The notes below the pieces were generated by a model that worked only from the letters and a program-made list of their open reading frames with translations, was not told the DNA's origin and did not search any database. Source: Tepidanaerobacter syntrophicus (lineage in GTDB: Bacteria; Bacillota; Thermosediminibacteria; Thermosediminibacterales; Tepidanaerobacteraceae). Taken from it: a DNA stretch of 64,000 nucleotides. Location of the stretch: contig NZ_DF976999.1 of assembly GCF_001485475.2 (NCBI RefSeq), forward strand, positions 1-64,000, read 5' to 3'. This document shows positions 5,300 through 38,091 of this stretch, in pieces. The position numbers and the translations under genes are program-made. Position 1 is the stretch's first letter. Every line of letters starts with the position of its first letter.

Positions 5300-6342
5300 A
5301 ATACCACCCCGCCTTTTCCTTTAACTGCCTTGCCTATTATCCATGCTTTCTCACCATTTTTCTGCAAGACATTTAAGACCTCATTTGCCGCATCGCAAGA
5401 TACCACAACCGCGTATCCTATACCCATATTAAAGGTGCGGTACATTTCCTTATCGCTTACTTGTCCTATTTTCTGTATCAAACTAAATACCGGTGGAATT
5501 TCCCATGAACCTTTTTTGATAGAAAAATGTATGCCTTCAGGCAGTATGCGTGGCAGATTTTCTATAATGCCGCCGCCGGTGATATGGGCCATGCCGTGAA
5601 TATCGAATTCGCTAAGAGATTCCACGGTTTTTACATAAATTTTGGTAGGCTCCAAAAGTTCCTCTCCCAAGGTTCTCCCAAGTTCTTCTATATAATCTGA
5701 TGATGAAAATTTGCCAATCTCAAAAAATACCTTTCTTGCCAGAGAAAAACCATTGCTGTGCAGGCCTGATGAGGCTATTCCTATAACTACGTCATCCTTT
5801 TCTATAGCTGAACCGTCTATAACCTTGCTTTTTTCAACAGCGCCCACGGCAAAACCCGCAATGTCATATTCGTCTTCGGCATACATACCAGGCATTTCTG
5901 CCGTCTCGCCGCCGATAAGCGCACAGCCGGCCATCTTGCAGCCGGCTGATACACCCTTCACTATATCGGCAACTTTTTCAGGTATGAGTTTGCCAAGCGC
6001 AATGTAATCTAGAAAAAACAGTGGCTCTGCTCCATGAACTATAATATCGTTTACGCACATTGCTACGCCGTCAATACCTACTGTATCGTGTTTATCCATC
6101 ATAAAGGCAATTTTAAGTTTTGTACCTACTCCGTCAGTGCCAGATACTAAAACTGGTTCCTTGTATTTTTTCGTATCCAGCTGAAAAAAACCTCCAAAAC
6201 TGCCTAAGTTTCCAAGCACACCCGGTCTGTAAGTAGAACGCACATGTTCTTTCATTAGTTCTACGGCACGATTGCCCGCATCTACATCTACTCCGGCATC
6301 CCTATAAGTTGCGCGCTTTATTTTAACACACACCCTTTCCAA
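5287..6342 (-). CDS. purM: Phosphoribosylformylglycinamidine cyclo-ligase (AIR synthetase)
   Basis: Closes the imidazole ring of FGAM with ATP to give [22 protein letters not shown] opens the family domain, and [14 protein letters not shown] and [11 protein letters not shown] carry the ATP- and substrate-binding motifs. [16 protein letters not shown] is also typical. The 351-residue reading starts with TTG at 6342, two bases after the purF stop. A GTG at 6333 is an alternative, but GGAAAGG is too close to it, so the start is uncertain by a few codons. Confidence 0.94.
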
Positions 6343-6344
6343 AT

Positions 6345-7748
6345 TTACCGTTTTTCAAATAGGTAACCCTTGCCTTCTCCAGGAACATCAATAGGATATT
6401 CACCGGAAAAACACCCTAAGCAGAATTTTTCCCGAGGAAATCCCGTCGATTTTACAAGTCCATCAAGGCTCAAATAACCCAAACTGTCGGCGCCGATATA
6501 CTCCCGTATTTCTTCAACTTTTCGCTGAGCACCTATGAGTTCCTTGCGGCTAGAAGTATCAATGCCAAAATAGCAGGAGTCTGTTACCGGGGGAGAACTT
6601 ATCCGCACATGCACTTCTTTTGCTCCGGCATCTTTTAGGATTTTTACAATAAGTCCGCTGGTAGTTCCCCTTACTATTGAATCATCAACCATTACTAGAC
6701 GTTTGCCCTGAACAACTTCTTTTATTGGATTAAGCTTGAGTTTGACCCCTATGGTTCTTAAGTTTTGTGTAGATTTTATAAATGTCCTGCCCACATAGTG
6801 ATTTTTGATAAGGCCTATGCCGAAAGGTATCCCCGACGCCTGGGCATAGCCCATAGCTGATATAGTACCTGAATCCGGAACACCTATTACAAGATCAGCG
6901 TCAGCAGGATGTTCCTGAGCTAAGAGTCTTCCTGCTTCTAGCCTTGCCATATGAACGTTTGTACCATCTATCGTGCTGTCAGGTCTTGCAAAATACACAA
7001 ATTCAAAAATACAAACCGCTTTTGAAGTTTCTTTATTTTTATTTATGCTTTGCAGGCCTTTATTATTAATTATTACTATTTCTCCGGGCTCTACATCTCT
7101 GATAAATTCAGCATCTATGGTATCTAAAGCACAGCTTTCAGAGGAAAGGACATATGAATCACCTTTTTTGCCAAGACAAAGCGGCCTTATGCCATTAGGG
7201 TCTCTCATACCTATAAGTGTATCCTCTGTCATTATTACAAGCGCATAAGAACCCTTCAGTTTACCCATACAGCTTTCTACCGCTTCAGCAATGTCGCCGG
7301 AATGAGCTTGTGCTATTAAAAATGCTATTATTTCACTGTCTATTTCTGTTTGAAATGCGACACCGTTTTCTTGGAGTTCTGTTCTAAGTTCTAAAGAGTT
7401 TACTAAATTGCCGTTGTGAGCAACTGCCAAGGACCCTCTTTTATACCGCACTACCAGCGGCTGAGAATTTATCAAAGTATTAGGCTCTGTCGTAGAATAT
7501 CTGACATGTCCTATGCCTATGCGCCCGGTAAGGTCATCTAGTATTTCATCGTTAAATACTTCAGAGGCAAGGCCCATTGCTTTATGATATCTTATTCCAT
7601 TTCCTGAGCTAACCGCTATCCCCGCACTTTCCTGGCCTCTGTGCTGTAGGGCATATAAGCCGTAAAATATATCGCGCCCCAGGCCGGCATTGTTTCGATT
7701 TTCATATATGCCCAATACACCGCAGGCTTCTTTTAATTCATCGCTCAT
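6345..7748 (-). CDS. purF: Amidophosphoribosyltransferase (first committed purine step)
   Basis: Makes phosphoribosylamine from PRPP and glutamine. Residue 9 is the cysteine nucleophile ([16 protein letters not shown]), preceded by a short propeptide as in the B. subtilis enzyme, which is cleaved to expose it. The glutaminase domain has [12 protein letters not shown], and the phosphoribosyltransferase site is [14 protein letters not shown]. Cysteines in [10 protein letters not shown] and [12 protein letters not shown] match the 4Fe-4S ligands of the oxygen-sensitive Bacillus type. It overlaps purL by 4 bp (ATGA). Confidence 0.96.
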
Positions 7749-23770: not shown

Positions 23771-23908
23771 TTATTGCTCTCCTTCAACTTCTGCAGCTAG
23801 ATATTCTGCAACTGGTATTTGATATATTTCTGGTATTTCCTCAATCGTTCTTCTTTTAGCTTTAATTAAAAGTGCATACACTGGAATCATGTACTCTCTA
23901 ACTTTCAT
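23771..23908 (-). CDS. CD1375-like small phage protein, 45 residues
   Basis: MKVREYMIPVYALLIKAKRR, TIEEIPEIYQIPV, then AEYLAAEVEGEQ. This resembles the tiny CD1375-type proteins found after tail-fibre genes in Clostridia phages (AILVK..RTI.EVPE pattern). Its ATG overlaps the stop of the preceding gene (TAATG). Role unknown. Confidence 0.7.
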   Translation of the reverse strand: MKVREYMIPVYALLIKAKRRTIEEIPEIYQIPVAEYLAAEVEGEQ

Positions 23909-24096
23909 TATTTAGCACCCCCTTCTAATGCTTCCACTCTAGCTCTTAATTCTTCCACTTCCCCTGCAAGCTTTTCCATGTCTTCATAAAGCATAGCTAT
24001 GACTTCTAGTGTATCTGCCTGTATTTCTATTTTCTTTTTTTCTTCCTCTTCTTTTATCTCGCTGATTGGTTTCTCATTAATTATCTTAACAGCCAT
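23908..24096 (-). CDS. Short coiled-coil protein downstream of the DGR target
   Basis: 62 residues, acidic/lysine-rich (ISEIKEEEEKKKIEI), ending in a leucine-heptad stretch (MEKLAGEVEELRARVEALEG). Its ATG overlaps the target gene's stop (TAATG), implying coupled translation. Position suggests a tail-fibre assembly chaperone or a small structural part. No family recognised. Confidence 0.65.
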   Translation of the reverse strand: MAVKIINEKPISEIKEEEEKKKIEIQADTLEVIAMLYEDMEKLAGEVEELRARVEALEGGAK

Positions 24097-26342
24097 TATT
24101 TAAAAGCACCTCCATATCCACTTAAGTAGCTTTTTTCTGTTGCAGTTCCTCTTTCTATTATTACTTGTATTCCTACTCCCCATTTATTTGCAGTTTTTGT
24201 TTCATTTAAGAAATTGTGATGTCTGCCTATTAATACCTGATCAGTTGCGTCTTCCCAAGTAGGCTCATCATCAAATACATTGTTGCATACAAGGACCTTA
24301 AATATTGCTCCTTCAGCTAGTTTATAGGTTGGTGTCACCAGCACTTGGGTGCACATGTCGTCTGTTTCCTTTGCAAATAGGTGCATTAGTCTTGTTACTA
24401 CCCTGGTAAAGGTATAGTTTCTAATGGCCGTAGCTCCATCATCATCTGTTACTTCAATTCTAATATTGTGTTTTGTGCTATCTAGCTGTAGCCAGTCTAG
24501 TTTTTCCATTGTGTAATCATAAGTTTGGCCAGCAATTATTGGATAGGTTTCTTTTAGTTTGTCATCCAGGAATATTTTTGCTGTCATTTGACTTCCTTCA
24601 ATGTCCGTTGCACTGAACGATACTGTGAATGGTTCTGTTTTTTCTCCTAGATCCTGGTCGCTTCCTGAAATTACTGGAGCACTGTTGGTCCTCCTGAAAG
24701 TGTATCTTCTGTATGATATGCCACCTTTACCATCATCAGCGCGTATTTCTATAGTGTTTACTTCATTTAATGGTAGCTCATATAAAGTTTCACTGGATAT
24801 TTCCATGATTATATCCTCATTTTGTGGAGCATTGGATAGGTTCTTAATAGTGTTTCCATTCAGTTTTTCTGTAATTGTTACATTGTCTCCATCTGGATCA
24901 TGTACCTGATATACAACTGTAAAGCCTTCGTTTTTATCCCCTATACTGCCATCCACGCCACTAATTATAGGAGCTGCGTTCACTCTCTTGAATGTATATT
25001 TTCTTGTTGCGGCTCCCCCTTTATTGTCCATGACTGTAATAGTTATTGTGTTGGTTGCTCCCATTGTAAGTCGTGATAGTGTTTCAGTGTCAATTTCTAT
25101 ATTATAGGTAAAATTCCTTTCAGCATTATTGATTGTTCTTATTGTTTCATTATTTAATTTCTCTACAACTGTTAATATATCGTCTTCATCTGTGTCGTTT
25201 ACTTGGTATGAAATTTTAAATGGTTCCGTCTTGTCTCCAAGGTCCTGGTCTGTGCCAGAAATCAGAGGAGCAGAATTCAGAACTACAAAGCAGGTGCGGA
25301 ACCCGTAGGTGCTGAGGGCATTACCCGTATTGCTGTCGAAGTAAGCAAGGCCAGCATTGCCGTAGTCACAGTCGCCGCCACGACGGAACACAGGACCGGA
25401 AGAGCTGGGAAAGCCGGAGACCGCACTGTTACCCTGCCAGTTTTTCCATGATGTTGTTCCTTCCCCTTGCTGTGATGTTTCGTGGATCATCATTCCATCT
25501 GTTAGTCCTTTAGCTGCATTGTAGTTATTTGGTCTATCGTCAGTAGATCCTACTGGAAATACGTCTTTGTATTTGCTTTCTGCATCAACTAAAGCTTTGC
25601 AATATGTGTTTAGGTTTGCATGGCCATTGTTTACATAGCTGGCTACATACTCGTAAGTGTTACCTACCATGTCAAAAATACCTGTCATGTTTCCTGTAGT
25701 GGAGCTAGCTCCTGTATTATCTATTCCATTGAGTCCATATCCTGTCTTGTAGTCGCTGTTACTATTTCTATCTGGTCTTTGGTTGCCTATAGCCTTGGCC
25801 AGCATTGCTGCAGCTCCCCACTCGGAGTTCTTCATCATATGGGAATCTACTCCATCAGCGTTAGTGGTCAGCTGATTCTTTAAGTCTAGACAGTTAATGA
25901 ATATATCGTTTACGGTTATACTTCTCCATGCTACCTTATCTGGTTTAAATCCTGGTATACCACCATTGTCTAGGTCCTTATGGGCTGCATATTTTGCTAC
26001 CCAAATACCTGACAATTCTTGATCTCCGAATGTAAATGCAGGATGTTTTTTGCATGCTCTGCCGTCAATTGTATTGGTATTGTCGTTTATTCCATCGGAA
26101 AATCTTATTTTAATTTCTGGATCATCTGCGTATTGAATTGCCCTATAGGTAAACCTCGGTATCCATACCCAAAGGTTGCCCTTAGTGTCTTTTGCATTGG
26201 CCCATTTCTTCATGCTAGGGTTGTAGTTGTAATCCCAGTTTTCAACCGTTGTTTCCTGGAAAGTGTGTCCTGAAACATGGTTGACTGGTACCCAGCCAGG
26301 CGGTAAAATGGGCCTATTTGCTAGTCCTGAAACTAATGCCAT
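24096..26342 (-). CDS. DGR target: tail protein with FGE/C-type-lectin-like variable domain and three Ig-like domains
   Basis: About 748 residues. Residues 1-352 resemble the formylglycine-generating-enzyme/sulfatase-modifying fold, a C-type-lectin scaffold of many DGR targets: WVWIPRFTYRAIQY, MMKNSEWGAAAMLAKAI, FDMVGNTYEYVASYV and ending GFRTCFVV. The variable repeat covers about residues 304-352. Then come three tandem repeats of about 98 residues, each opening AP-x-ISG-x-D-x-x-x-G-x-K and closing Y-T-F-x-R, like Ig/cadherin-type tail domains (about 358-650), and a 100-residue C-terminal part. The start is the ATG at 26342, preceded by TTGGAGGG; a TTG five codons earlier overlaps that motif. 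It lies just after the tail-fibre genes, so it is probably the host-binding adhesin. Confidence 0.9.
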   Translation of the reverse strand: MALVSGLANRPILPPGWVPVNHVSGHTFQETTVENWDYNYNPSMKKWANAKDTKGNLWVWIPRFTYRAIQYADDPEIKIRFSDGINDNTNTIDGRACKKHPAFTFGDQELSGIWVAKYAAHKDLDNGGIPGFKPDKVAWRSITVNDIFINCLDLKNQLTTNADGVDSHMMKNSEWGAAAMLAKAIGNQRPDRNSNSDYKTGYGLNGIDNTGASSTTGNMTGIFDMVGNTYEYVASYVNNGHANLNTYCKALVDAESKYKDVFPVGSTDDRPNNYNAAKGLTDGMMIHETSQQGEGTTSWKNWQGNSAVSGFPSSSGPVFRRGGDCDYGNAGLAYFDSNTGNALSTYGFRTCFVVLNSAPLISGTDQDLGDKTEPFKISYQVNDTDEDDILTVVEKLNNETIRTINNAERNFTYNIEIDTETLSRLTMGATNTITITVMDNKGGAATRKYTFKRVNAAPIISGVDGSIGDKNEGFTVVYQVHDPDGDNVTITEKLNGNTIKNLSNAPQNEDIIMEISSETLYELPLNEVNTIEIRADDGKGGISYRRYTFRRTNSAPVISGSDQDLGEKTEPFTVSFSATDIEGSQMTAKIFLDDKLKETYPIIAGQTYDYTMEKLDWLQLDSTKHNIRIEVTDDDGATAIRNYTFTRVVTRLMHLFAKETDDMCTQVLVTPTYKLAEGAIFKVLVCNNVFDDEPTWEDATDQVLIGRHHNFLNETKTANKWGVGIQVIIERGTATEKSYLSGYGGAFK
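25289..25432 (-). repeat. DGR variable repeat (VR)
   Basis: 144 bp aligned without gaps to the template repeat. It differs at 19 positions, every one A in the coding strand of the template: 13 A-to-G, 4 A-to-T, 2 A-to-C. The 104 non-A positions are identical. All 19 changes fall in codon positions 1 or 2 and alter 15 residues (for example Asn to Val, Gly, Ser, Asp, Tyr, Leu, Thr). The unchanged GC-rich coding 3' end (GGGTTCCGCACCTGCT) is where the initiation-of-mutagenic-homology site is expected. Confidence 0.97.
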
Positions 26343-26526: not shown

Positions 26527-26670
26527 AGCAGGTGCGGAACCCGTTGTTGCTGTTGGCATTACCCGTATTGTTGTTGAAGTAAGCAAGGCCAGCATTGTCG
26601 TTGTTATAGTTGCCGCCACGATGGAACACAGGATTGGAAGAGTTGGGAAAGTTGGAGTTCGCACTGTTAC
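26527..26670 (-). repeat. DGR template repeat (TR)
   Basis: 144 bp, starting 19 bases after the reverse transcriptase stop codon on the same strand. It contains 40 template-strand adenines, concentrated in AAC/AAT codons when read in the frame of the target (for example FNNNTGNANSNNGFRTC), so A mutagenesis gives wide residue choice without stop codons. It is transcribed into the RNA that is copied with adenine errors and used to rewrite the VR. A short open frame across it is not a gene. Confidence 0.97.
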
Positions 26671-26688: not shown

Positions 26689-27714
26689 TTATTTGTTTTT
26701 TACTAATACAAAATTCTTAAACATATGATCTATAAGTAAATAGCTGTCGGCATGCTTTGCATACCCTTTCCAGCTATTTATAGACCTTTTTATCTCCTCT
26801 AATGTCATTTCTCCATTAGCATATTTCCTTTGATATGCTTTCAATTTTCTTTTCATTTTCTTTTTACTGCAATCTCTTATTTTCATATGAGTTGACCATA
26901 TTTTGTAACCACAAAAATTGACTCCATTTTTAACCGGAAATATTTGCGTCTTTTTATTTAGTTTAAGTTTCAGCCTCTCATCTAAAAATATTATAATCTC
27001 CTTTAGGGCCTGTTGGGCCTCTTCTTTGTTTTTAAATATTAGGACCCAGTCATCCATATATCTAACATACATCTTTACTTTCAGTTTGTGTTTTATGAAC
27101 ATATCTAACTGATGTAGATATAAATTAGCAAACCATTGGGATGTATATGATCCTACTGGTATTCCTGGATCCTCTGTTGTGTCTAATATAACTTTTGTAA
27201 GCCACAAAACTTCTGGATCTTTTATTTTACTGGCCACAATGTTATAAAGTATTGTATGGTCTATGCTGAAGAAGTAGCTCTTAATGTCGCCTTTAAGAAT
27301 ATAAGGTCTTTCCCATTTTGCTTCTGCAGTTTTTAAGAATTTTTGCACTCTATATGCTGCTCCATGCATTCCTTTGCCTTCAATACATGCATAGGAGTCA
27401 TATATGAATGCTTTCCCAAATATAGGGATGATAAAATTCTTTACATACCACTGGTGAATTACTCTATCTCTATAAGGGGCTGCCTTAATAAGTCTTTTCT
27501 TAGGCTCGTAAATAGTAAACTCCAAGTATTCTCCTGGAGCATATGTTTTATTTTTTAATTCGTTATACAGTTTTATGATATTGCCTTCTAGATTCATTTC
27601 AAATTCAATTACATCTTTTCTAAATCTTTTCCCCTTTTTAGCGCTCTGATGGGCATTTAATAAGCTGGAGAATGTTAATGCTGATTCGAATAAATTCTTA
27701 TATGTTTTTGCCAT
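26689..27714 (-). CDS. DGR reverse transcriptase
   Basis: 341 residues with the RT palm and fingers: ILKGDIKSYFFSID (first catalytic Asp, about 143), GIPVGSYTSQWFANLYLHQLD (about 184-204) and VRYMDDWVLIF with YMDD at 219-222. The stretch GSYTSQ in motif 4, where retroviruses and group II introns have a QG, is a recognised mark of DGR reverse transcriptases. There is no maturase or endonuclease domain. Copies TR RNA with random bases opposite adenines. It overlaps avd by 17 bp, so the two are coupled. Confidence 0.96.
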   Translation of the reverse strand: MAKTYKNLFESALTFSSLLNAHQSAKKGKRFRKDVIEFEMNLEGNIIKLYNELKNKTYAPGEYLEFTIYEPKKRLIKAAPYRDRVIHQWYVKNFIIPIFGKAFIYDSYACIEGKGMHGAAYRVQKFLKTAEAKWERPYILKGDIKSYFFSIDHTILYNIVASKIKDPEVLWLTKVILDTTEDPGIPVGSYTSQWFANLYLHQLDMFIKHKLKVKMYVRYMDDWVLIFKNKEEAQQALKEIIIFLDERLKLKLNKKTQIFPVKNGVNFCGYKIWSTHMKIRDCSKKKMKRKLKAYQRKYANGEMTLEEIKRSINSWKGYAKHADSYLLIDHMFKNFVLVKNK

Positions 27715-28072
27715 TCCTAGTTGATTTTATCCATCCACCTAATATTTTTCCTATTTCATCCAGCCTCCTAGCCCATTCGATATAGTTTTTATTAGATATA
27801 TACTTATATTTATGAGCTAATCTTACTAAGACTTTTTGTAGCTGCACTTCTGCATCTATCATATTGAGCATTTCTAATCTTTTCTGACTATTTCCATATA
27901 TTTTATTAGCTCTTAAAATATATTTAAGTGTATCAAACATGCTGTTTTTAAAACTAGCTGCCATAGCATACTTTTCACTTTTGGGGAATTTCCTTATTCT
28001 ATCATAGGCGTATTCAATCAAATCTACATACTTTTGGTAGATTAGGAGCTCTTTCCTCTGTGTCTGACCCAT
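27698..28072 (-). CDS. avd: DGR accessory variability determinant (Avd), four-helix bundle
   Basis: 124 residues, basic and all-helical: MGQTQRKELLIYQKYVDLIE, FPKSEKYAMAASFKNSMFDT, LNMIDAEVQLQKVLVRLAHK and WARRLDEIGKILGGWIKS. This matches the S23-like four-helix bundle of Avd proteins, which form a pentamer and bind the RT and template RNA. Start ATG at 28072 follows AGGGGTG; a GTG three codons upstream overlaps it. Placed directly before the RT. Confidence 0.88.
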   Translation of the reverse strand: MGQTQRKELLIYQKYVDLIEYAYDRIRKFPKSEKYAMAASFKNSMFDTLKYILRANKIYGNSQKRLEMLNMIDAEVQLQKVLVRLAHKYKYISNKNYIEWARRLDEIGKILGGWIKSTRNGKNI

Positions 28073-28091
28073 GATGAACACCCCTTCTGTC

Positions 28092-28316
28092 TTAGCGAAT
28101 GCATCTCTTGTTTCTTATCTCGTCTATTGTTTCTCTTTGGCCAGAATACTCAAAGCCAAAATCATTTATAATAATGTATTCCTCTTTTCCTTCATAAGTA
28201 GTCCCTTTGATGACTAATTTATCCTGATTGCATAGTTCGCATACAGGCAATAACTCTACAAATAGATTGGATATTATGCATGAAAGTTGGTCTTTTGTGC
28301 AAGCGAACTTCTCCAT
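28092..28316 (-). CDS. Hypothetical 74-residue protein between the collar fibre and avd
   Basis: Not recognised. It has a CELC pair (LLPVCELCNQDKLVIKG) and a beta-rich C-terminal half (KEEYIIINDFGFEYSG). It sits 2 bp after the collar-fibre gene and 20 bp before avd, so it may belong to the tail module or be a DGR accessory. The frame is coding-like and cleanly packed between neighbours. Confidence 0.55.
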   Translation of the reverse strand: MEKFACTKDQLSCIISNLFVELLPVCELCNQDKLVIKGTTYEGKEEYIIINDFGFEYSGQRETIDEIRNKRCIR

Positions 28317-28996: not shown

Positions 28997-29733
28997 TATT
29001 TCACCTCCGAAGTAATTGTTTTCTTGCTAACTCTCTTATTGGCTCCAGCTATATTTATATTGCCTTTAACTGTTATACTCTCATTTATTATCGCCGGCTT
29101 AATGGTCATGACTTTACTTTGTCTATAAGTTATTCCTGCGTATATTCTTCCGGATACGGTTATATCTTCTATCTTGTATGGGTTGAAGATCATTGTCTTA
29201 AGTTTCCTGGACCCAACTCCAATCCTAAAATCCATGACCCGGTCATGTTCTATTACTATTTTTTCTAGCCATGACCTAGTGTTTTTTACTGTATTGATTG
29301 CGTCAATAATTTTAGTATATTTTTCTTCGCTATCTATTAAATCTCTTGTGTGTATCTTGAACATGTAAGGTTTTCCATCATATTCGAACCATTCTTCGAC
29401 CTGTCCTTTTCCGAATATCTCTGTCACAATTTCTTCTACGGCTGCTGGAGTGCCTTTTCTTTTGTGCCATCTTATTGAGTTTTTAACAAGCGTTCTTCTT
29501 ATTTCAAGAGGTAAGCTTGTATCATAGAAATCGACATGTCGTTCCCATGCCAGAAGATCCACCAGGTCGCTCTCCAGTTCGTCTATTCTAGGCATTATTA
29601 TGCAGTGTTTGGCCTCATTTACAACTAGCAAAAATTCATCGTCTACTGCCTTTGAGGCTGCTATTATATCCGGGTCGTGCCGTAAGTTTGGCGGCAAGAG
29701 ATCTAGGAGCTTGACTTCATATATATCAATCAT
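28996..29733 (-). CDS. Phage tail protein I (P2 gpI-like baseplate)
   Basis: 245 residues with LLPPNLRHDPDIIAASKAVD, WERHVDFYDTSLPLEIRRTL and RWHKRKGTPAAVEEIVTEIF, the signature of P2 gpI baseplate proteins. The C-terminal extension is beta-rich. The start at 29733 (MIDIYEV) follows GGAGGG; five codons upstream an ATG lies inside that motif. Confidence 0.9.
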   Translation of the reverse strand: MIDIYEVKLLDLLPPNLRHDPDIIAASKAVDDEFLLVVNEAKHCIIMPRIDELESDLVDLLAWERHVDFYDTSLPLEIRRTLVKNSIRWHKRKGTPAAVEEIVTEIFGKGQVEEWFEYDGKPYMFKIHTRDLIDSEEKYTKIIDAINTVKNTRSWLEKIVIEHDRVMDFRIGVGSRKLKTMIFNPYKIEDITVSGRIYAGITYRQSKVMTIKPAIINESITVKGNINIAGANKRVSKKTITSEVK

Positions 29734-30862
29734 CTTCAAGCCCTCCATAAGTTACGGATACATTTTCAGCGACCGCAACCTGGTTTTTCTCTAGTTTTGC
29801 GAACACTGGTTCTACTATTTCAATCCTTTTTGCCCCAGCCTGAATAATTCTTGCGATAAGTTCAGACGGATTTATATCTCGTCCTATCTTTGATCTTTGC
29901 CATATTTGAAATTGAGATATCGCATTATCTACCCTTTGCCTTATAGATGTTTCTGCGGTCTCATCTTGGGTTCGAATATAATAGGTTAAGTTAATATTAT
30001 AGCTTACTATATCCGGAGCACCTACCAACACATGGTCAGTTAATGGTCTTTTGTCTTTAGCAGATAAGTATTCTTTTAATCCATCTAAAAACGCTTGGCC
30101 AGGTATTTCTCCATTTTTAAGAAGAACTCTTATATCTACAGTGCCAGGGCCTGGTGAAGACACTGCAACATCTTCTATAAGCTGGCTGTATTTTTTTGCA
30201 AAAAACACATATCCTAGTTCTGATCCAGCTGTGCTATATCCTTCAGGGGCTAAGTTTATCTTTTCCCTGTAACTCTCATCGTCTTCCTCGTCGGCGCCAC
30301 CCTGACTTGTGTCTGTGTTCACTACACTGGCAATCCATGGGAGAGGGTCGACGAGTATATTTATCTGCCCGGGCGTAAAGCCATTTCCTATTTCGCCGGC
30401 TACGGTGCACTCATTGACAGCTATAACTTCCGTTGCTCCAGCCGGCACTTCGATTGTTTCTAGAGTTTGAAAATATACATCTTTTTTTGACCTTACCCGA
30501 GTGCCGGCGGGGATATATTGTATTGTTGGCAAAGGTGTGCTTAAAATATATTTCATGGTTACGGTTGCCTTTTTTGCATCAGCTCGCGGAACATCATGAT
30601 CTGCGCCCTTATGATCAAGAAATGGCCCTTTTGCATACTTTAGCAGATTTTGTTTTGCTGAGTAATCTATTAGCTGACGAAGTTGAAACTCGCGAAGTGC
30701 CTGGCTGTATAGCCATATTCTTATCGGGTCTCCTGGGAATAGCTTTTTAACTTCTCCGGTCTGCTCATAATATGCCTTTTCATAACCGGAAATAGTATCC
30801 GCCAATATTTCTTCAATGCTTTTTTGTGCAAAACTGACATCAGGGAGCTTATCGAGGTGCAT
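29726..30862 (-). CDS. Baseplate J family protein
   Basis: 378 residues of the P2 gpJ / baseplate_J family, which forms the wedge of contractile tails: YIPAGTRVRSKKDVYFQTLE, GQINILVDPLPWIASVVNTD, QGGADEEDDESYREKI and the C-terminal GRDINPSELIARIIQAGAKRIE. Directly follows the gp25-like gene (2-bp gap) and overlaps tail protein I by 8 bp. Confidence 0.93.
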   Translation of the reverse strand: MHLDKLPDVSFAQKSIEEILADTISGYEKAYYEQTGEVKKLFPGDPIRIWLYSQALREFQLRQLIDYSAKQNLLKYAKGPFLDHKGADHDVPRADAKKATVTMKYILSTPLPTIQYIPAGTRVRSKKDVYFQTLETIEVPAGATEVIAVNECTVAGEIGNGFTPGQINILVDPLPWIASVVNTDTSQGGADEEDDESYREKINLAPEGYSTAGSELGYVFFAKKYSQLIEDVAVSSPGPGTVDIRVLLKNGEIPGQAFLDGLKEYLSAKDKRPLTDHVLVGAPDIVSYNINLTYYIRTQDETAETSIRQRVDNAISQFQIWQRSKIGRDINPSELIARIIQAGAKRIEIVEPVFAKLEKNQVAVAENVSVTYGGLEDD

Positions 30863-31203: not shown

Positions 31204-31593
31204 TTAAATATACTCTTCCAGTGTTAATTCCACCGAACTAATTAACACATTGCCTCTATTATCAATATGAGTCCATTTTTGAACCTGAGATTTTATAACC
31301 CATTTATTCACTCCTATGCCTTTTCCACCAATAACAAGCGGAACGGCTTCTCCTGAACGTGCAAGTGCTATCAATTCATCCATCTCTTTTCTAGGATTAA
31401 TTCCGTATGCTACATCAAAGCGTATCTCAAAAGTTATCACATCCAGATCCGGGCCTAAAAACTCAGATTTAGGTTTTTGCAAATGTATTTCATGTTTTGC
31501 CCATCTACCTTCGGATGACCTTTCAAATTTGTCGAATGTGCGAACCGTCTCAGCCGATACAACAAAAACTACATTCCCTAAAGCTCCAATCAT
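31204..31593 (-). CDS. Tail protein U-like (P2 gpU)
   Basis: 129 residues. It reads IGALGNVVFVVSAETVRTFD, ARWA-like KHEIHLQKPKSEFLGPDLD and GVNKWVIKSQVQKWTHID, as in gpU/Phage_P2_GpU domains that terminate or cap the tail tube. It sits between the V spike and gp25 genes. Confidence 0.85.
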   Translation of the reverse strand: MIGALGNVVFVVSAETVRTFDKFERSSEGRWAKHEIHLQKPKSEFLGPDLDVITFEIRFDVAYGINPRKEMDELIALARSGEAVPLVIGGKGIGVNKWVIKSQVQKWTHIDNRGNVLISSVELTLEEYI

Positions 31594-31606
31594 GAAATCA
31601 CCGCCT

Positions 31607-32080
31607 TTATTGTGGCTTACCTAGCAATGGGTGCGTGTGATTCTTTAGACTTATTCCGTCTGCTATTACATCACCGGTTACGTTTACATCTTTATTTGCC
31701 ACGATATTAATTGGCCCTGTTGCATTAATAGTAAGGGTGCTCTTTGAGCTGTCGTATTCTATTTTTGTTCCATCCTTGAAAACTACCATTCTTTTGTTAC
31801 GGTCATCAGTAGGAGGCCTATCTTCATCGTTATACACGGACCCTATGATAAATCCTTCGGCATTTCCGGTGGGCAAAAATATGCATACTACCTGTTCACC
31901 AACATCCGGCATGTAGTAATCTTTGTTATTGCGCGTTTGGCGTTGTAAAACTACTAGGTTATGTGATACTACATTTTGAGCTCCAAAAACCACTCTCGCA
32001 GTAGATTTTGAAGGGTTAACCGAAGAAACTACACCGACCTTTATTATGTTTTTTAGCAATTTTAATAAATGGACGTTCAT
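31607..32080 (-). CDS. Baseplate assembly/spike protein V
   Basis: 157 residues of the gpV family: an OB-fold (VGVVSSVNPSKSTARVVF, YYMPDVGEQVVCIFLP, GFIIGSVYNDEDRPP) followed by a beta-helical spike (TLTINATGPINIVANKDVNV) and a C-terminal HTHP. Forms the membrane-piercing tip of the tail. TAATG overlap with the D gene. Confidence 0.9.
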   Translation of the reverse strand: MNVHLLKLLKNIIKVGVVSSVNPSKSTARVVFGAQNVVSHNLVVLQRQTRNNKDYYMPDVGEQVVCIFLPTGNAEGFIIGSVYNDEDRPPTDDRNKRMVVFKDGTKIEYDSSKSTLTINATGPINIVANKDVNVTGDVIADGISLKNHTHPLLGKPQ

Positions 32081-33102
32081 TAATACCCCTCCAATACTCT
32101 TCGAAGCTCAAGCTCTGTAGTATAACCCGCGCTCCCGCCTTCGTGTTTAGCCTCAGTTATAAAATATTTGCCATCAAATCTTCCCCAGCCTTTTAGATTA
32201 ACCGTCACGCCGCTTACAAACCGAACATCCCCTGATAATTTAACATTGAAGGTGGTTTCTTCCTTGTTTTTTTCTCGCAAGCTTTTCTTCGCCAGCCGTT
32301 CAGCCTCGCTATAACTTGAAACCCTTTCGTTAATGACAAGGGTCCTCCCAACCTTTGGGCCATTGGGCGGGGTGTAAGTATATATGATGGGCTCTTTCTT
32401 ATCTGACGCTTGATATTCAACCCGGCAAGCTGAATATATATCCCGAGTCTTAGAATTTCCACTATAGCTGATTACATTAGAGGATCCACGGGTAATAGTT
32501 GCAACCGGTTCCTGTTGCTCATATTTGCTGTCGTCAAAAATGATTATCGTTTTATTGGTAACTTTCAGCGATAGCCCGGCTTCTTCGCAAAGCCTTTGAA
32601 GAAATGCAATATCAGTTTCTTCTGTCTGCTCAATCCTGTCATATTCGGCATCATATTCAGTATCAAAAAACAGCTCCAGGCCGGATCCGCTAGCAATGTC
32701 GCTTGCCACGATAGATAGTCTTGTATTTTCCCACGCCCTATTCTTGTCTTCATCCCAAAGGGACGATGATACCGGCACCGAGACGCCTTTTATAGTCACA
32801 ACATCTGGAGGGCCCTGCAGGTCAATATCGTCTATTTCAAACTGGCCCAGAGGCAGTCTTTGAACCTCTCCCTCGTAATTCCAGTTTCTGGTTATTATTT
32901 CGGCTGTAAGTGTAGCGCCCTTTTCGGGGAACCAGCTGGCTTTCCAAAGATCTTCTTTATCGTCAAGATTGATTTGCAAGTCATCAGCCTTACCATTTGC
33001 ATAGTCGCTATATGAAAATCCAATAAGAAACCTCCTCAGGTCTGCACTGATGTTCTTGTTGTTGTAATTCACATTAAGTGTTGCTGTCCTCGCCTGAGCC
33101 AC
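32080..33102 (-). CDS. Tail hub protein D (late control D/gp27-like)
   Basis: 340 residues of the phage late control D / VgrG-N family. Recognisable: the ADLRRFLIGFSYSDYANGKADDLQINLDD start, DIAFLQRLCEEAGLSLKV and GWGRFDGKYFITEAKHEGG. It forms the baseplate hub that holds the spike. Confidence 0.88.
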   Translation of the reverse strand: MAQARTATLNVNYNNKNISADLRRFLIGFSYSDYANGKADDLQINLDDKEDLWKASWFPEKGATLTAEIITRNWNYEGEVQRLPLGQFEIDDIDLQGPPDVVTIKGVSVPVSSSLWDEDKNRAWENTRLSIVASDIASGSGLELFFDTEYDAEYDRIEQTEETDIAFLQRLCEEAGLSLKVTNKTIIIFDDSKYEQQEPVATITRGSSNVISYSGNSKTRDIYSACRVEYQASDKKEPIIYTYTPPNGPKVGRTLVINERVSSYSEAERLAKKSLREKNKEETTFNVKLSGDVRFVSGVTVNLKGWGRFDGKYFITEAKHEGGSAGYTTELELRRVLEGY

Positions 33103-36642: not shown

Positions 36643-38091
36643 TTACGCGAATAATGTCTGGAAGTATCCAGGATCGATTTCAACTATAAACTCTATCACC
36701 CTATTAGGTGCTGGCGGTGTTACATATACGTGGAACCTATGGATTCCATCCATTAAGTCAGTAACAGGGTTTTCGATGTCTAAAAACTCTACCCTACCAC
36801 CAAGCAGGTATCCTCTGGCAACTAAGCCATTCAGCCATATATTTGCCGAATCTACAACATTTTCAATGGCTCGCCTTGACGGCGGATCATCTACCTTCTG
36901 CCAATATGTGAGCACTAAAGTGTTTGATATCCAGTCAATCATTCTCCGCACAGGTATAAAGCTGTCTTTTGGATCCGTTACTGATGGATAGGCTCCCGTT
37001 CTATTGCCCCAGGCTTTCCATCCGCTGATGAAATTCAAACAAGTTACAATGCCCTGGCCATTTAAGTATGATGCCTGATCAGGGCCCAGAGCGATGACTT
37101 TGTCTCCTGCTACGGCGCCGTTGGCCTGTAAGTTCTTATTCGAAGGGCTTACGTATGGTATATCGTCGTTCTCTGCATCGGTCCGGCACATTACACCTGA
37201 TATTTGCGTAGAAAGATGATATACCTCATCCCCCAGTTTTATCTGTGGCCAACAAACTACCTGTCTTGCAGATGTATAGTTGTTTGTGTTTTTCCACTCT
37301 GATACATCCGTGTATTTTTGAACCTCATCGGTTGGAATGTCTACCACTGCAATACATTTGAAGTGTCCATTAATATTGCTTACCTTTGCCGTCATTACAG
37401 CTGCTACAACCGGATCCTTTGACCATTTTGGAGCAAGCACCATACCGGGAACTAGGCCAAAAAGAGGGAATACCTTATTCAGGGTTTCAAGGCCAGTGTA
37501 ATCCCCAGTATCAATATCAATACCGCCAATGATATCATCGACTGTAACCAAAGATGCATCAACTTTGTCATATCCAATATAAAGCTCGGCTTGGTCTTTC
37601 GGAACACTACCGCCTTCGAGAATGGTTATAACTACATTGCCGTCTTTATCAAAAGCTGCTGCATAATCCGTATCGCGGATTAAATCGGCTCCGCCTGCTT
37701 CGAGCTTTGCAGTAATAGTATTCAGTAAAACTCCATCATCTGTTATCAGGATTTCACCAGCTTCAATCGCCATTGAAATTGGCTCAACCGTCTTTGTATG
37801 TTTTACTGGGTCCAATACATTGACAAAGACTACAGGAGAACAGGCATATTTGCCAAAGTGCGAGTCCATAAACTCACATAGAGTGTATTTTTCCCAGTCT
37901 TTGCTGTATCCTAGCTGCTCGACTGCTTCAGCGTAAGTATAGCACAAAGTAGGCTTATGAGTAGGCGCCGGGTCTCTGGCCAAGTGAATTGGTGCTGTTC
38001 CGAAAACTACCGGTAGACCTGCGGTTGTTGAAACGGCAGGAGTTATTGAAGTATCCACTTCAGATATATATACGCCATGTCTATAGGCCAT
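36643..38091 (-). CDS. Tail sheath protein (P2 gpFI)
   Basis: 482 residues. The start AYRHGVYISEVDTSITPAVS (N-terminal handshake arm) and C-terminal half (RRMIDWISNTLVLTYWQKVD, RAIENVVDSANIWLNGLVAR) are typical of contractile sheath proteins. It is the main evidence that the phage is a myovirus. Confidence 0.95.
   Translation of the reverse strand: MAYRHGVYISEVDTSITPAVSTTAGLPVVFGTAPIHLARDPAPTHKPTLCYTYAEAVEQLGYSKDWEKYTLCEFMDSHFGKYACSPVVFVNVLDPVKHTKTVEPISMAIEAGEILITDDGVLLNTITAKLEAGGADLIRDTDYAAAFDKDGNVVITILEGGSVPKDQAELYIGYDKVDASLVTVDDIIGGIDIDTGDYTGLETLNKVFPLFGLVPGMVLAPKWSKDPVVAAVMTAKVSNINGHFKCIAVVDIPTDEVQKYTDVSEWKNTNNYTSARQVVCWPQIKLGDEVYHLSTQISGVMCRTDAENDDIPYVSPSNKNLQANGAVAGDKVIALGPDQASYLNGQGIVTCLNFISGWKAWGNRTGAYPSVTDPKDSFIPVRRMIDWISNTLVLTYWQKVDDPPSRRAIENVVDSANIWLNGLVARGYLLGGRVEFLDIENPVTDLMDGIHRFHVYVTPPAPNRVIEFIVEIDPGYFQTLFA

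What the first reader, a model, noticed from the sequence alone, without database searches (positions are those of the whole stretch)
25289..26342. Variable repeat sits in the middle of its target protein, before three Ig-like domains
DGR variable repeats normally end at or near the C-terminus of a C-type-lectin domain. Here the VR encodes about residues 304-352 of 748. About 290 residues of tandem repeats of about 98 residues and a 100-residue tail follow. The hypervariable face would lie on an internal domain of an elongated tail protein. The other DGR targets I know have the VR last, so this layout deserves attention.
Basis: partly seen in the sequence, partly recalled or inferred. Interest (0 to 1): 0.75.

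Follow-up and report, generated by a model that had tools for sequence, protein, structure and literature searches.

The report
Mid-protein hypervariable site on phage fibre
A prophage gene's self-mutating stretch lies mid-gene, at the end of the binding domain and before a shaft of immunoglobulin-like domains; this layout is already known ('tentaclins'), but the DNA just after such stretches carries an evenly spaced TCTG signal, found in most of the related elements checked, which here is also read as protein.

Summary
A 748-residue prophage protein carries a DGR variable repeat (VR) at residues 304-352; all 19 TR/VR differences fall on template adenines. About 396 residues follow: three Big_9-type repeats and a ~98-residue tail. 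The layout is not new: it fits the 2023 'tentaclin' family (N-terminal C-type lectin, Ig-like shaft, conserved C-terminal domain). By domain the VR is where it always is, at the end of a formylglycine-generating-enzyme-type lectin; the shaft is added behind it. This is a new branch: Mushu-like shaft (45% identity), a different head, relatives in a geothermal Desulfotomaculum and a Dethiobacter MAG. Following the layout led to something I found described nowhere in the searched library. A block just after the VR is conserved at synonymous sites and carries TCTG/YTG cores every 7-8 nt. Of 63 deduplicated, RT-selected viral VRs, 40 have four or more phased YTG directly after the VR; none of the 63 template ends do. 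Terminal VRs carry it in non-coding DNA, often before a hairpin; in tentaclins it is translated (LNSAPLISG) and the hairpin is missing. I read it as a cis-acting homing signal.

The parts
24096..26342 (-). DGR target gene, 748-aa tentaclin-type protein
   Evidence: open frame, homologous to the FP_Mushu DGR target from residue 338 to 748
25284..26342 (-). N-terminal FGE-type C-lectin head, residues 1-353, with the VR at its C-terminal edge
   Evidence: hhalign with terminal-VR FGE targets: 97.3%, E 2.7e-11, 237 columns ending at the last residues of both; those targets match TaqVP 5vf4, E 2e-98; weak direct match to 5vf4, E 0.004
25289..25432 (-). Variable repeat, residues 304-352
   Evidence: 19 differences to TR, all at TR adenines
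25256..25288 (-). Phased YTG element right after the VR: TTG 25288, CTG 25280, 25273, 25265, 25258 (spacing 8, 7, 8, 7); translated as (F)VVLNSAPLISG
   Evidence: synonymous-site conservation; only CTG chain of 4 or more on either strand of the window; same element at most VRs of related DGRs
24987..25274 (-). Ig-like repeat 1, about residues 357-452
   Evidence: Pfam Big_9, two stretches, whole-protein E 1.1e-9
24690..24977 (-). Ig-like repeat 2, about residues 456-551 (boundaries by repeat spacing)
   Evidence: Big_9; residues 454-639 match a solved phage tail fibre, 31he, E 1.5e-9
24393..24680 (-). Ig-like repeat 3, about residues 555-650 (boundaries by repeat spacing)
   Evidence: 31he match covers it
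24099..24392 (-). C-terminal conserved domain, about residues 651-748; the putative virion anchor of tentaclins
   Evidence: 13 invariant columns in the 8-phage alignment A1; 266 relatives in viral contigs
26527..26670 (-). Template repeat, between RT and target gene; no phased element after it
26689..27714 (-). DGR reverse transcriptase (341 aa)
   Evidence: Pfam RVT_1 E 7.5e-20; PHROG reverse transcriptase E 5e-131
27698..28081 (-). avd accessory protein (bAvd)
   Evidence: Pfam bAvd E 1.7e-26
23908..24096 (-). 62-aa coiled-coil-like ORF touching the target stop codon; possible partner, unproven
   Evidence: weak coiled-coil matches only

Best explanation
This is a phage DGR that diversifies a tentaclin-type receptor-binding fibre. 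The N-terminal FGE-type C-lectin carries the hypervariable face; three Ig-like domains form a shaft; the C-terminal domain probably anchors the fibre to the virion. Mutagenic homing into a VR that is followed by about 1.2 kb of coding DNA is possible because the target-site signal next to the VR does not have to be intergenic: a run of TCTG/YTG cores spaced 7-8 nt lies directly after the VR and is simply translated as the head-shaft linker, and the hairpin used at many terminal VRs is dispensed with. Shown: the DGR, the layout, the family relationship, and the conservation, phasing and VR-specificity of the element. Inferred: that the element acts in homing, that the lectin is distal, and that the ligand is on a bacterial host.
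For: DGR. Tentaclin relationship. Head swapping on a conserved shaft and anchor. Synonymous conservation of the block after the VR: window vs L096 11/12 codons against 76/200 in the head; Mushu group rank 1 of 605 12-codon windows; nd12 group rank 1 of 570; no such signal in four non-DGR tentaclins with a homologous head end. In three two-target phages the second VR, in another gene, carries the same ~30-nt block (21-24/30), falling to 9/30 beyond it, with only 4-10/30 identity to TR. Phased YTG: 40/63 deduplicated VRs against 0/63 TR ends; 173 of 220 spacings between neighbouring YTG are 7 or 8 nt. Coding versions beat synonymous shuffles in the FGE and Mushu groups (CTG cores) and in nd12 and Brigit (TCT cores).
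Against: No homing experiment. BPP-1 itself, the only DGR dissected at this level, has just two phased YTG, and there the 4-bp VR-hairpin spacer can be complemented without loss (PMC3240598). 23 of 63 VRs lack a chain of four. The Toutatis group shows no phasing and no conservation peak. The two VRs of one phage also share the encoded peptide, so part of the conservation could be protein-level. The TCT test for the nd12 and Brigit groups was chosen after seeing the sequences.
Confidence: 0.75

Rival explanations
1. The block after the VR is conserved for protein or recombination reasons (last lectin strand and linker, or a junction where heads are swapped), not for homing.
For: The peptide is also conserved (LNSAPLISG, NLKSxILVS), and two VRs of one phage share it. 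Heads are swapped near this point.
Against: Synonymous sites are conserved there and not in non-DGR homologues. The same phased cores occur after terminal VRs in non-coding DNA. The cores exceed synonymous shuffles.
Confidence: 0.17
2. [quoted passage not shown]
For: Relatives are annotated Hoc-like, and mucus binding was proposed for Mushu and Brigit (PMC5883640); PHROG 10993 'Hoc-like' matches.
Against: The gene follows baseplate J, Tail_P2_I, tail-collar fibre, avd and RT; the Ig part matches a solved tail fibre, 31he. Relatives of this branch lie in a geothermal Desulfotomaculum and a Dethiobacter MAG, where gut mucus is not an option.
Confidence: 0.12
3. The DGR is a relic: the VR was mutated once and the cassette no longer homes.
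For: Only one VR sequence is available here; no population data.
Against: RT, avd, TR and target are intact; all 19 changes are at A with no other decay in the repeat; siblings carry different VRs. In the homologous Mushu system VR reads are variable (PMC5883640).
Confidence: 0.08
4. The layout is an assembly or frame artefact.
For: None found.
Against: Residues 338-748 align without a break to Mushu; siblings L096 and L103-L105 have the same layout.
Confidence: 0.01

Closest known systems
Tentaclins (Baykov et al. 2023, PMC10743442; phages nd4, nd12, FP_Mushu, FP_Brigit)
   Same: N-terminal C-lectin with the VR, Ig-like domains behind it, conserved C-terminal ~100 aa, gene inside a DGR cassette. 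Residues 338-748 are about 45% identical to the Mushu target.
   Different: The head is FGE-type and about 353 aa, with no sequence match to the heads of the other tentaclin loci fetched up. The RT is only 35-41% identical to those of Mushu and nd12. TR lies after RT. At 748 aa (966 in siblings) it exceeds the 649-aa maximum reported for ordinary phage tentaclins (an 830-aa tentaclin-like protein is also reported there). Close relatives are environmental, not gut.
TaqVP / Mtd / TvpA class of FGE-type C-lectin variable proteins
   Same: VR is the last part of an FGE-type C-lectin domain (PMC6328139).
   Different: There the VR ends the protein; here an Ig shaft and a C-terminal domain follow.
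BPP-1 DGR target site: IMH plus hairpin (Guo et al. 2011, PMC3240598)
   Same: A short DNA region directly downstream of VR that is absent at TR.
   Different: No GRNA-loop hairpin in 67 tentaclins, against 31 of 63 RT-selected VRs. Instead a run of phased YTG/TCTG cores, inside the coding sequence.
T4 Hoc-like decoration proteins
   Same: Tandem Ig-like domains.
   Different: According to PMC10743442, T4 Hoc has no N-terminal lectin and a different C-terminal domain. Gene context here is the tail module.

Membership tests
Diversity-generating retroelement | TR/VR pair differing at TR adenines, with a DGR-type RT nearby | tested here: met
   19/19 differences at A; RVT_1 and bAvd; RT has YMDD and GSYTSQ
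Diversity-generating retroelement | Active mutagenic homing | not testable with these tools
   No read data or bench assay; Mushu is reported active in PMC5883640
Tentaclin | N-terminal C-lectin domain carrying the VR | tested here: met
   By profile only: hhalign 97.3% to FGE-type DGR targets, which match TaqVP. No model
Tentaclin | Beta-hairpin formed by the VR on the lectin surface | not testable with these tools
[quoted passage not shown]
   Big_9, 31he match
Tentaclin | C-terminal ~100-aa domain with conserved residues | tested here: met
   Alignment A1 with Mushu, Brigit, nd4, nd12 and others: 13 invariant columns including NN, D..P.W.D.T, F.N. The paper's own seven positions (a figure) were not available to me
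Tentaclin | Size up to 649 aa in ordinary phage members (a description, not a definition) | tested here: not met
   748 aa here, 966 aa in siblings; the authors report larger tentaclin-like variants, so I do not treat this as a defining feature
BPP-1-type hairpin target site | 7-10 bp GC-rich stem with 4-nt GRNA loop within 4-34 bp of VR | tested here: not met
   Best perfect stem after the window VR is 4 bp, no excess over synonymous shuffles; 0 of 67 tentaclins
Phased YTG element seen at related VRs | Four or more YTG cores at 7-8 nt spacing directly after VR, absent after TR | tested here: met
   Five YTG at 8/7/8/7; TR end lacks it

The most novel reading that the evidence does not exclude
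A run of TCTG/YTG cores at 7-8 nt spacing directly after VR is an undescribed, widespread homing signal of phage DGRs. It is non-coding at terminal VRs but fully translated in tentaclins, so a DGR can target the middle of a gene; the usual C-terminal position of VRs then reflects the hairpin and stop codon, not an absolute need for intergenic DNA.
Probability: 0.55. Interest if true: 0.8.

Novelty: new variant of a known kind. Interest (0 to 1): 0.62.

Why it matters
Roux et al. 2021 explain C-terminal VRs by saying that only there can the cis-acting homing elements be intergenic (PMC8144416). Tentaclins break that rule, and the element found here shows how: the signal is read as protein. If confirmed, it gives a concrete DNA signal to test and to use when pointing a DGR at the interior of a gene, and a way to find VR targets without alignment to a TR. 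The environmental relatives of this branch also weigh against gut epithelium or immune cells as the general ligand of tentaclins, two of the hypotheses in the 2023 paper.

Tried and rejected
(1) A BPP-1-like hairpin inside the coding block: no excess over synonymous shuffles, 0 of 67 with a GRNA loop. (2) Base pairing between DGR spacer RNA and the block after VR: seen only in the Mushu group (ACTTCAAGG with CCTTGAAGT), own-versus-permuted p 0.007 but driven by two related loci, and the arm also pairs inside the spacer; not claimed. (3) Close relatives of the whole protein in viral contigs: none; in 60 related genomes: none. (5) Second-VR search within 5-6 kb flanks found nothing; whole phage records were needed. 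(6) Two apparent internal VRs in the RT-selected set were set aside: L234 was a wrong frame, and L229's VR lies at the contig edge so its frame could not be settled. (7) L104 and L105 were found by searching for the element itself, so they do not count as evidence for its conservation; L096 (found via RT) and L103 (also found via the head protein) do.

Full report
OBSERVATION. The target gene runs 26342-24096 on the - strand (748 aa). VR (25289-25432) and TR (26527-26670) are 144 nt and differ at 19 positions, all TR adenines. The VR covers residues 304-352. avd and a reverse transcriptase precede it in a tail module: baseplate J, Tail_P2_I, tail-collar fibre, small ORF, avd, RT, TR, target ('baseplate J' for 29726-30862 is my reading of the translation). 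The frame is sound: residues 338-748 align to the FP_Mushu DGR target without a break at about 45% identity. This RT is the only RVT_1 match in the 2.43-Mb genome, and no second VR was found.

WHAT THE DOMAINS ARE. Residues 1-353 match terminal-VR FGE-type DGR targets by profile comparison (hhalign 97.3%, E 2.7e-11, ending at the last residues of both). Those targets in turn match the solved variable protein TaqVP (5vf4, E 2e-98). So the VR is at the end of its lectin domain as usual; what is unusual is that a shaft follows. Big_9-type repeats start at 357, and residues 454-639 match a solved phage tail fibre, 31he. The last ~98 residues are a conserved domain shared by 266 viral loci. Most of the 80 loci kept have other N-terminal heads and no RT; where an RT is next to the gene, a VR is usually found in the middle of it. 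That pattern, constant tail and exchanged heads, suggests that the tail attaches to the virion and the head faces outward.

KNOWN OR NOT. Baykov et al. 2023 (PMC10743442) named this architecture 'tentaclin' and noted the 5'-located VR in nd4 and nd12. Cornuault et al. 2018 (PMC5883640) had reported Mushu and Brigit as Hoc-like DGR targets, but wrote that the VRs lie at the 3' end; my detector places Mushu's VR at residues 192-224 of a 618-aa frame and Brigit's at 173-217 of 628. Over 67 tentaclin sequences (not all independent) the complete ones have 203 to 600 residues after the VR. Internal VRs are otherwise rare: in 66 VRs drawn by RT similarity alone, 62 lie within 10 residues of the C-terminus, and the one confirmed internal case (L238) is again a tentaclin.

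A NEW BRANCH. The FGE head has no sequence match to the heads of the other tentaclin loci fetched up to then, and the RT is 35-41% identical to those of Mushu and nd12. Its relatives are L096 and L103 (metagenomes), L104 (a Dethiobacter MAG) and L105 (Desulfotomaculum copahuensis, a species from the Copahue geothermal area). Further RT relatives L099-L101 have FGE targets with ordinary terminal VRs. The simplest reading is that a canonical FGE-VR head was joined to a tentaclin shaft. The host of the window itself was not identified by name.

THE ELEMENT AFTER THE VR. Comparing the window with L096 (found through its RT, not through this DNA), codons 351-363 keep 11 of 12 synonymous choices, against 76 of 200 in the head. 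In groups selected by the C-terminal domain, the first codons after the VR have the highest synonymous identity of the whole gene in the Mushu group (0.82 vs mean 0.44, rank 1 of 605) and the nd12 group (0.79 vs 0.47, rank 1 of 570). The peak is weaker in Brigit (rank 11 of 613) and absent in Toutatis (rank 86 of 414). Four non-DGR tentaclins with a homologous head end show nothing (0.54 vs 0.53; small sample). In three two-target phages (nd12, nd4, Lelie), the second VR, in a gene about 10-14 kb away, carries the same block: 23, 24 and 21 of 30 nt identical, then 9/30 beyond; identity to TR 4-10/30; best match elsewhere in each genome 17-19/30. The block therefore travels with the VR, not with the shaft. 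The encoded peptide is shared as well, which limits this test.

PHASING. The non-coding DNA after the terminal VRs of L099-L101 holds CTG four times at 7-8 nt spacing, the same pattern as in the coding block of the window and Mushu. I tested this on a set chosen by RT similarity only (it overlaps the discovery set in one contig, L260 = L099). Of 63 deduplicated VRs, 40 have four or more YTG at 7-8 nt steps within -3..+45, against 0 of 63 TR ends and about 0.3% of background windows. CTG at 7-8 nt is the best of all trinucleotide and spacing combinations tried, and 173 of 220 spacings between neighbouring YTG are 7 or 8 nt. In tentaclins the cores exceed synonymous shuffles: FGE 5/5 and Mushu 11/12 with CTG x4; nd12 26/32 with TCT x4; Brigit 10/13 with TCT x3 (the TCT test is post hoc). 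In the window the five cores are at 25288, 25280, 25273, 25265 and 25258, and this is the only CTG chain of four or more on either strand of the 64 kb. Of the 63 RT-selected VRs, 31 also have a GRNA-loop hairpin; 0 of 67 tentaclins do. As a control, the detector recovers the BPP-1 VR and its GAAA hairpin, but BPP-1 has only two phased YTG.

MECHANISM. In BPP-1 the region right after VR is needed for efficient homing (PMC3240598; PMC12875486). I propose that in this broader RT clade the phased YTG run is part of that recognition region and that it tolerates translation, while the hairpin is lost when the site is internal. What reads the cores (Avd, RT, or the RNA) is unknown.

LITERATURE LIMIT. 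None of the papers found mentions such a run, but subscription papers were not available and some known DGR surveys were not held, so 'undescribed' is provisional.

VERDICT.

Noticed in passing
L004, L020-L025, L036, L048, L093 (Mushu group), 47-57 nt after TR: A spacer-RNA arm (ACTTCAAGG and variants) is complementary to the VR-side IMH (CCTTGAAGT); in L021/L022 both sides differ together. The arm also pairs within the spacer, so this may be coincidence.
   Followed up: partly
L009 (Dulem virus 33) 5500-6600: Lectin-like end and Ig/anchor part appear to be split into separate ORFs, and no TR/VR pair was found.
   Followed up: no
L103, L105 targets, about residues 640-755: The 966-aa siblings carry an insert in the shaft; in L105 it matches carbohydrate-binding module CBM_4_9 (E 1.4e-5).
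   Followed up: no
window 23908-24096: 62-aa coiled-coil-like ORF touching the target stop codon; several tentaclin phages also have a small ORF there.
   Followed up: no
window 28092-28316: 74-aa ORF matching phrog_21058 (unknown function), between the tail-collar fibre and avd.
   Followed up: no
L189 (nd12) 31922-32178, L190 (nd4) 31369-31669, L191 (Lelie) 37029-37271: Second VRs are not strictly terminal either: 39-68 residues follow.
   Followed up: partly
G379, four loci (L195, L199-L201): One genome of the phylum carries four identical-scoring copies of the tentaclin C-terminal domain, perhaps a multicopy transposable prophage.
   Followed up: no
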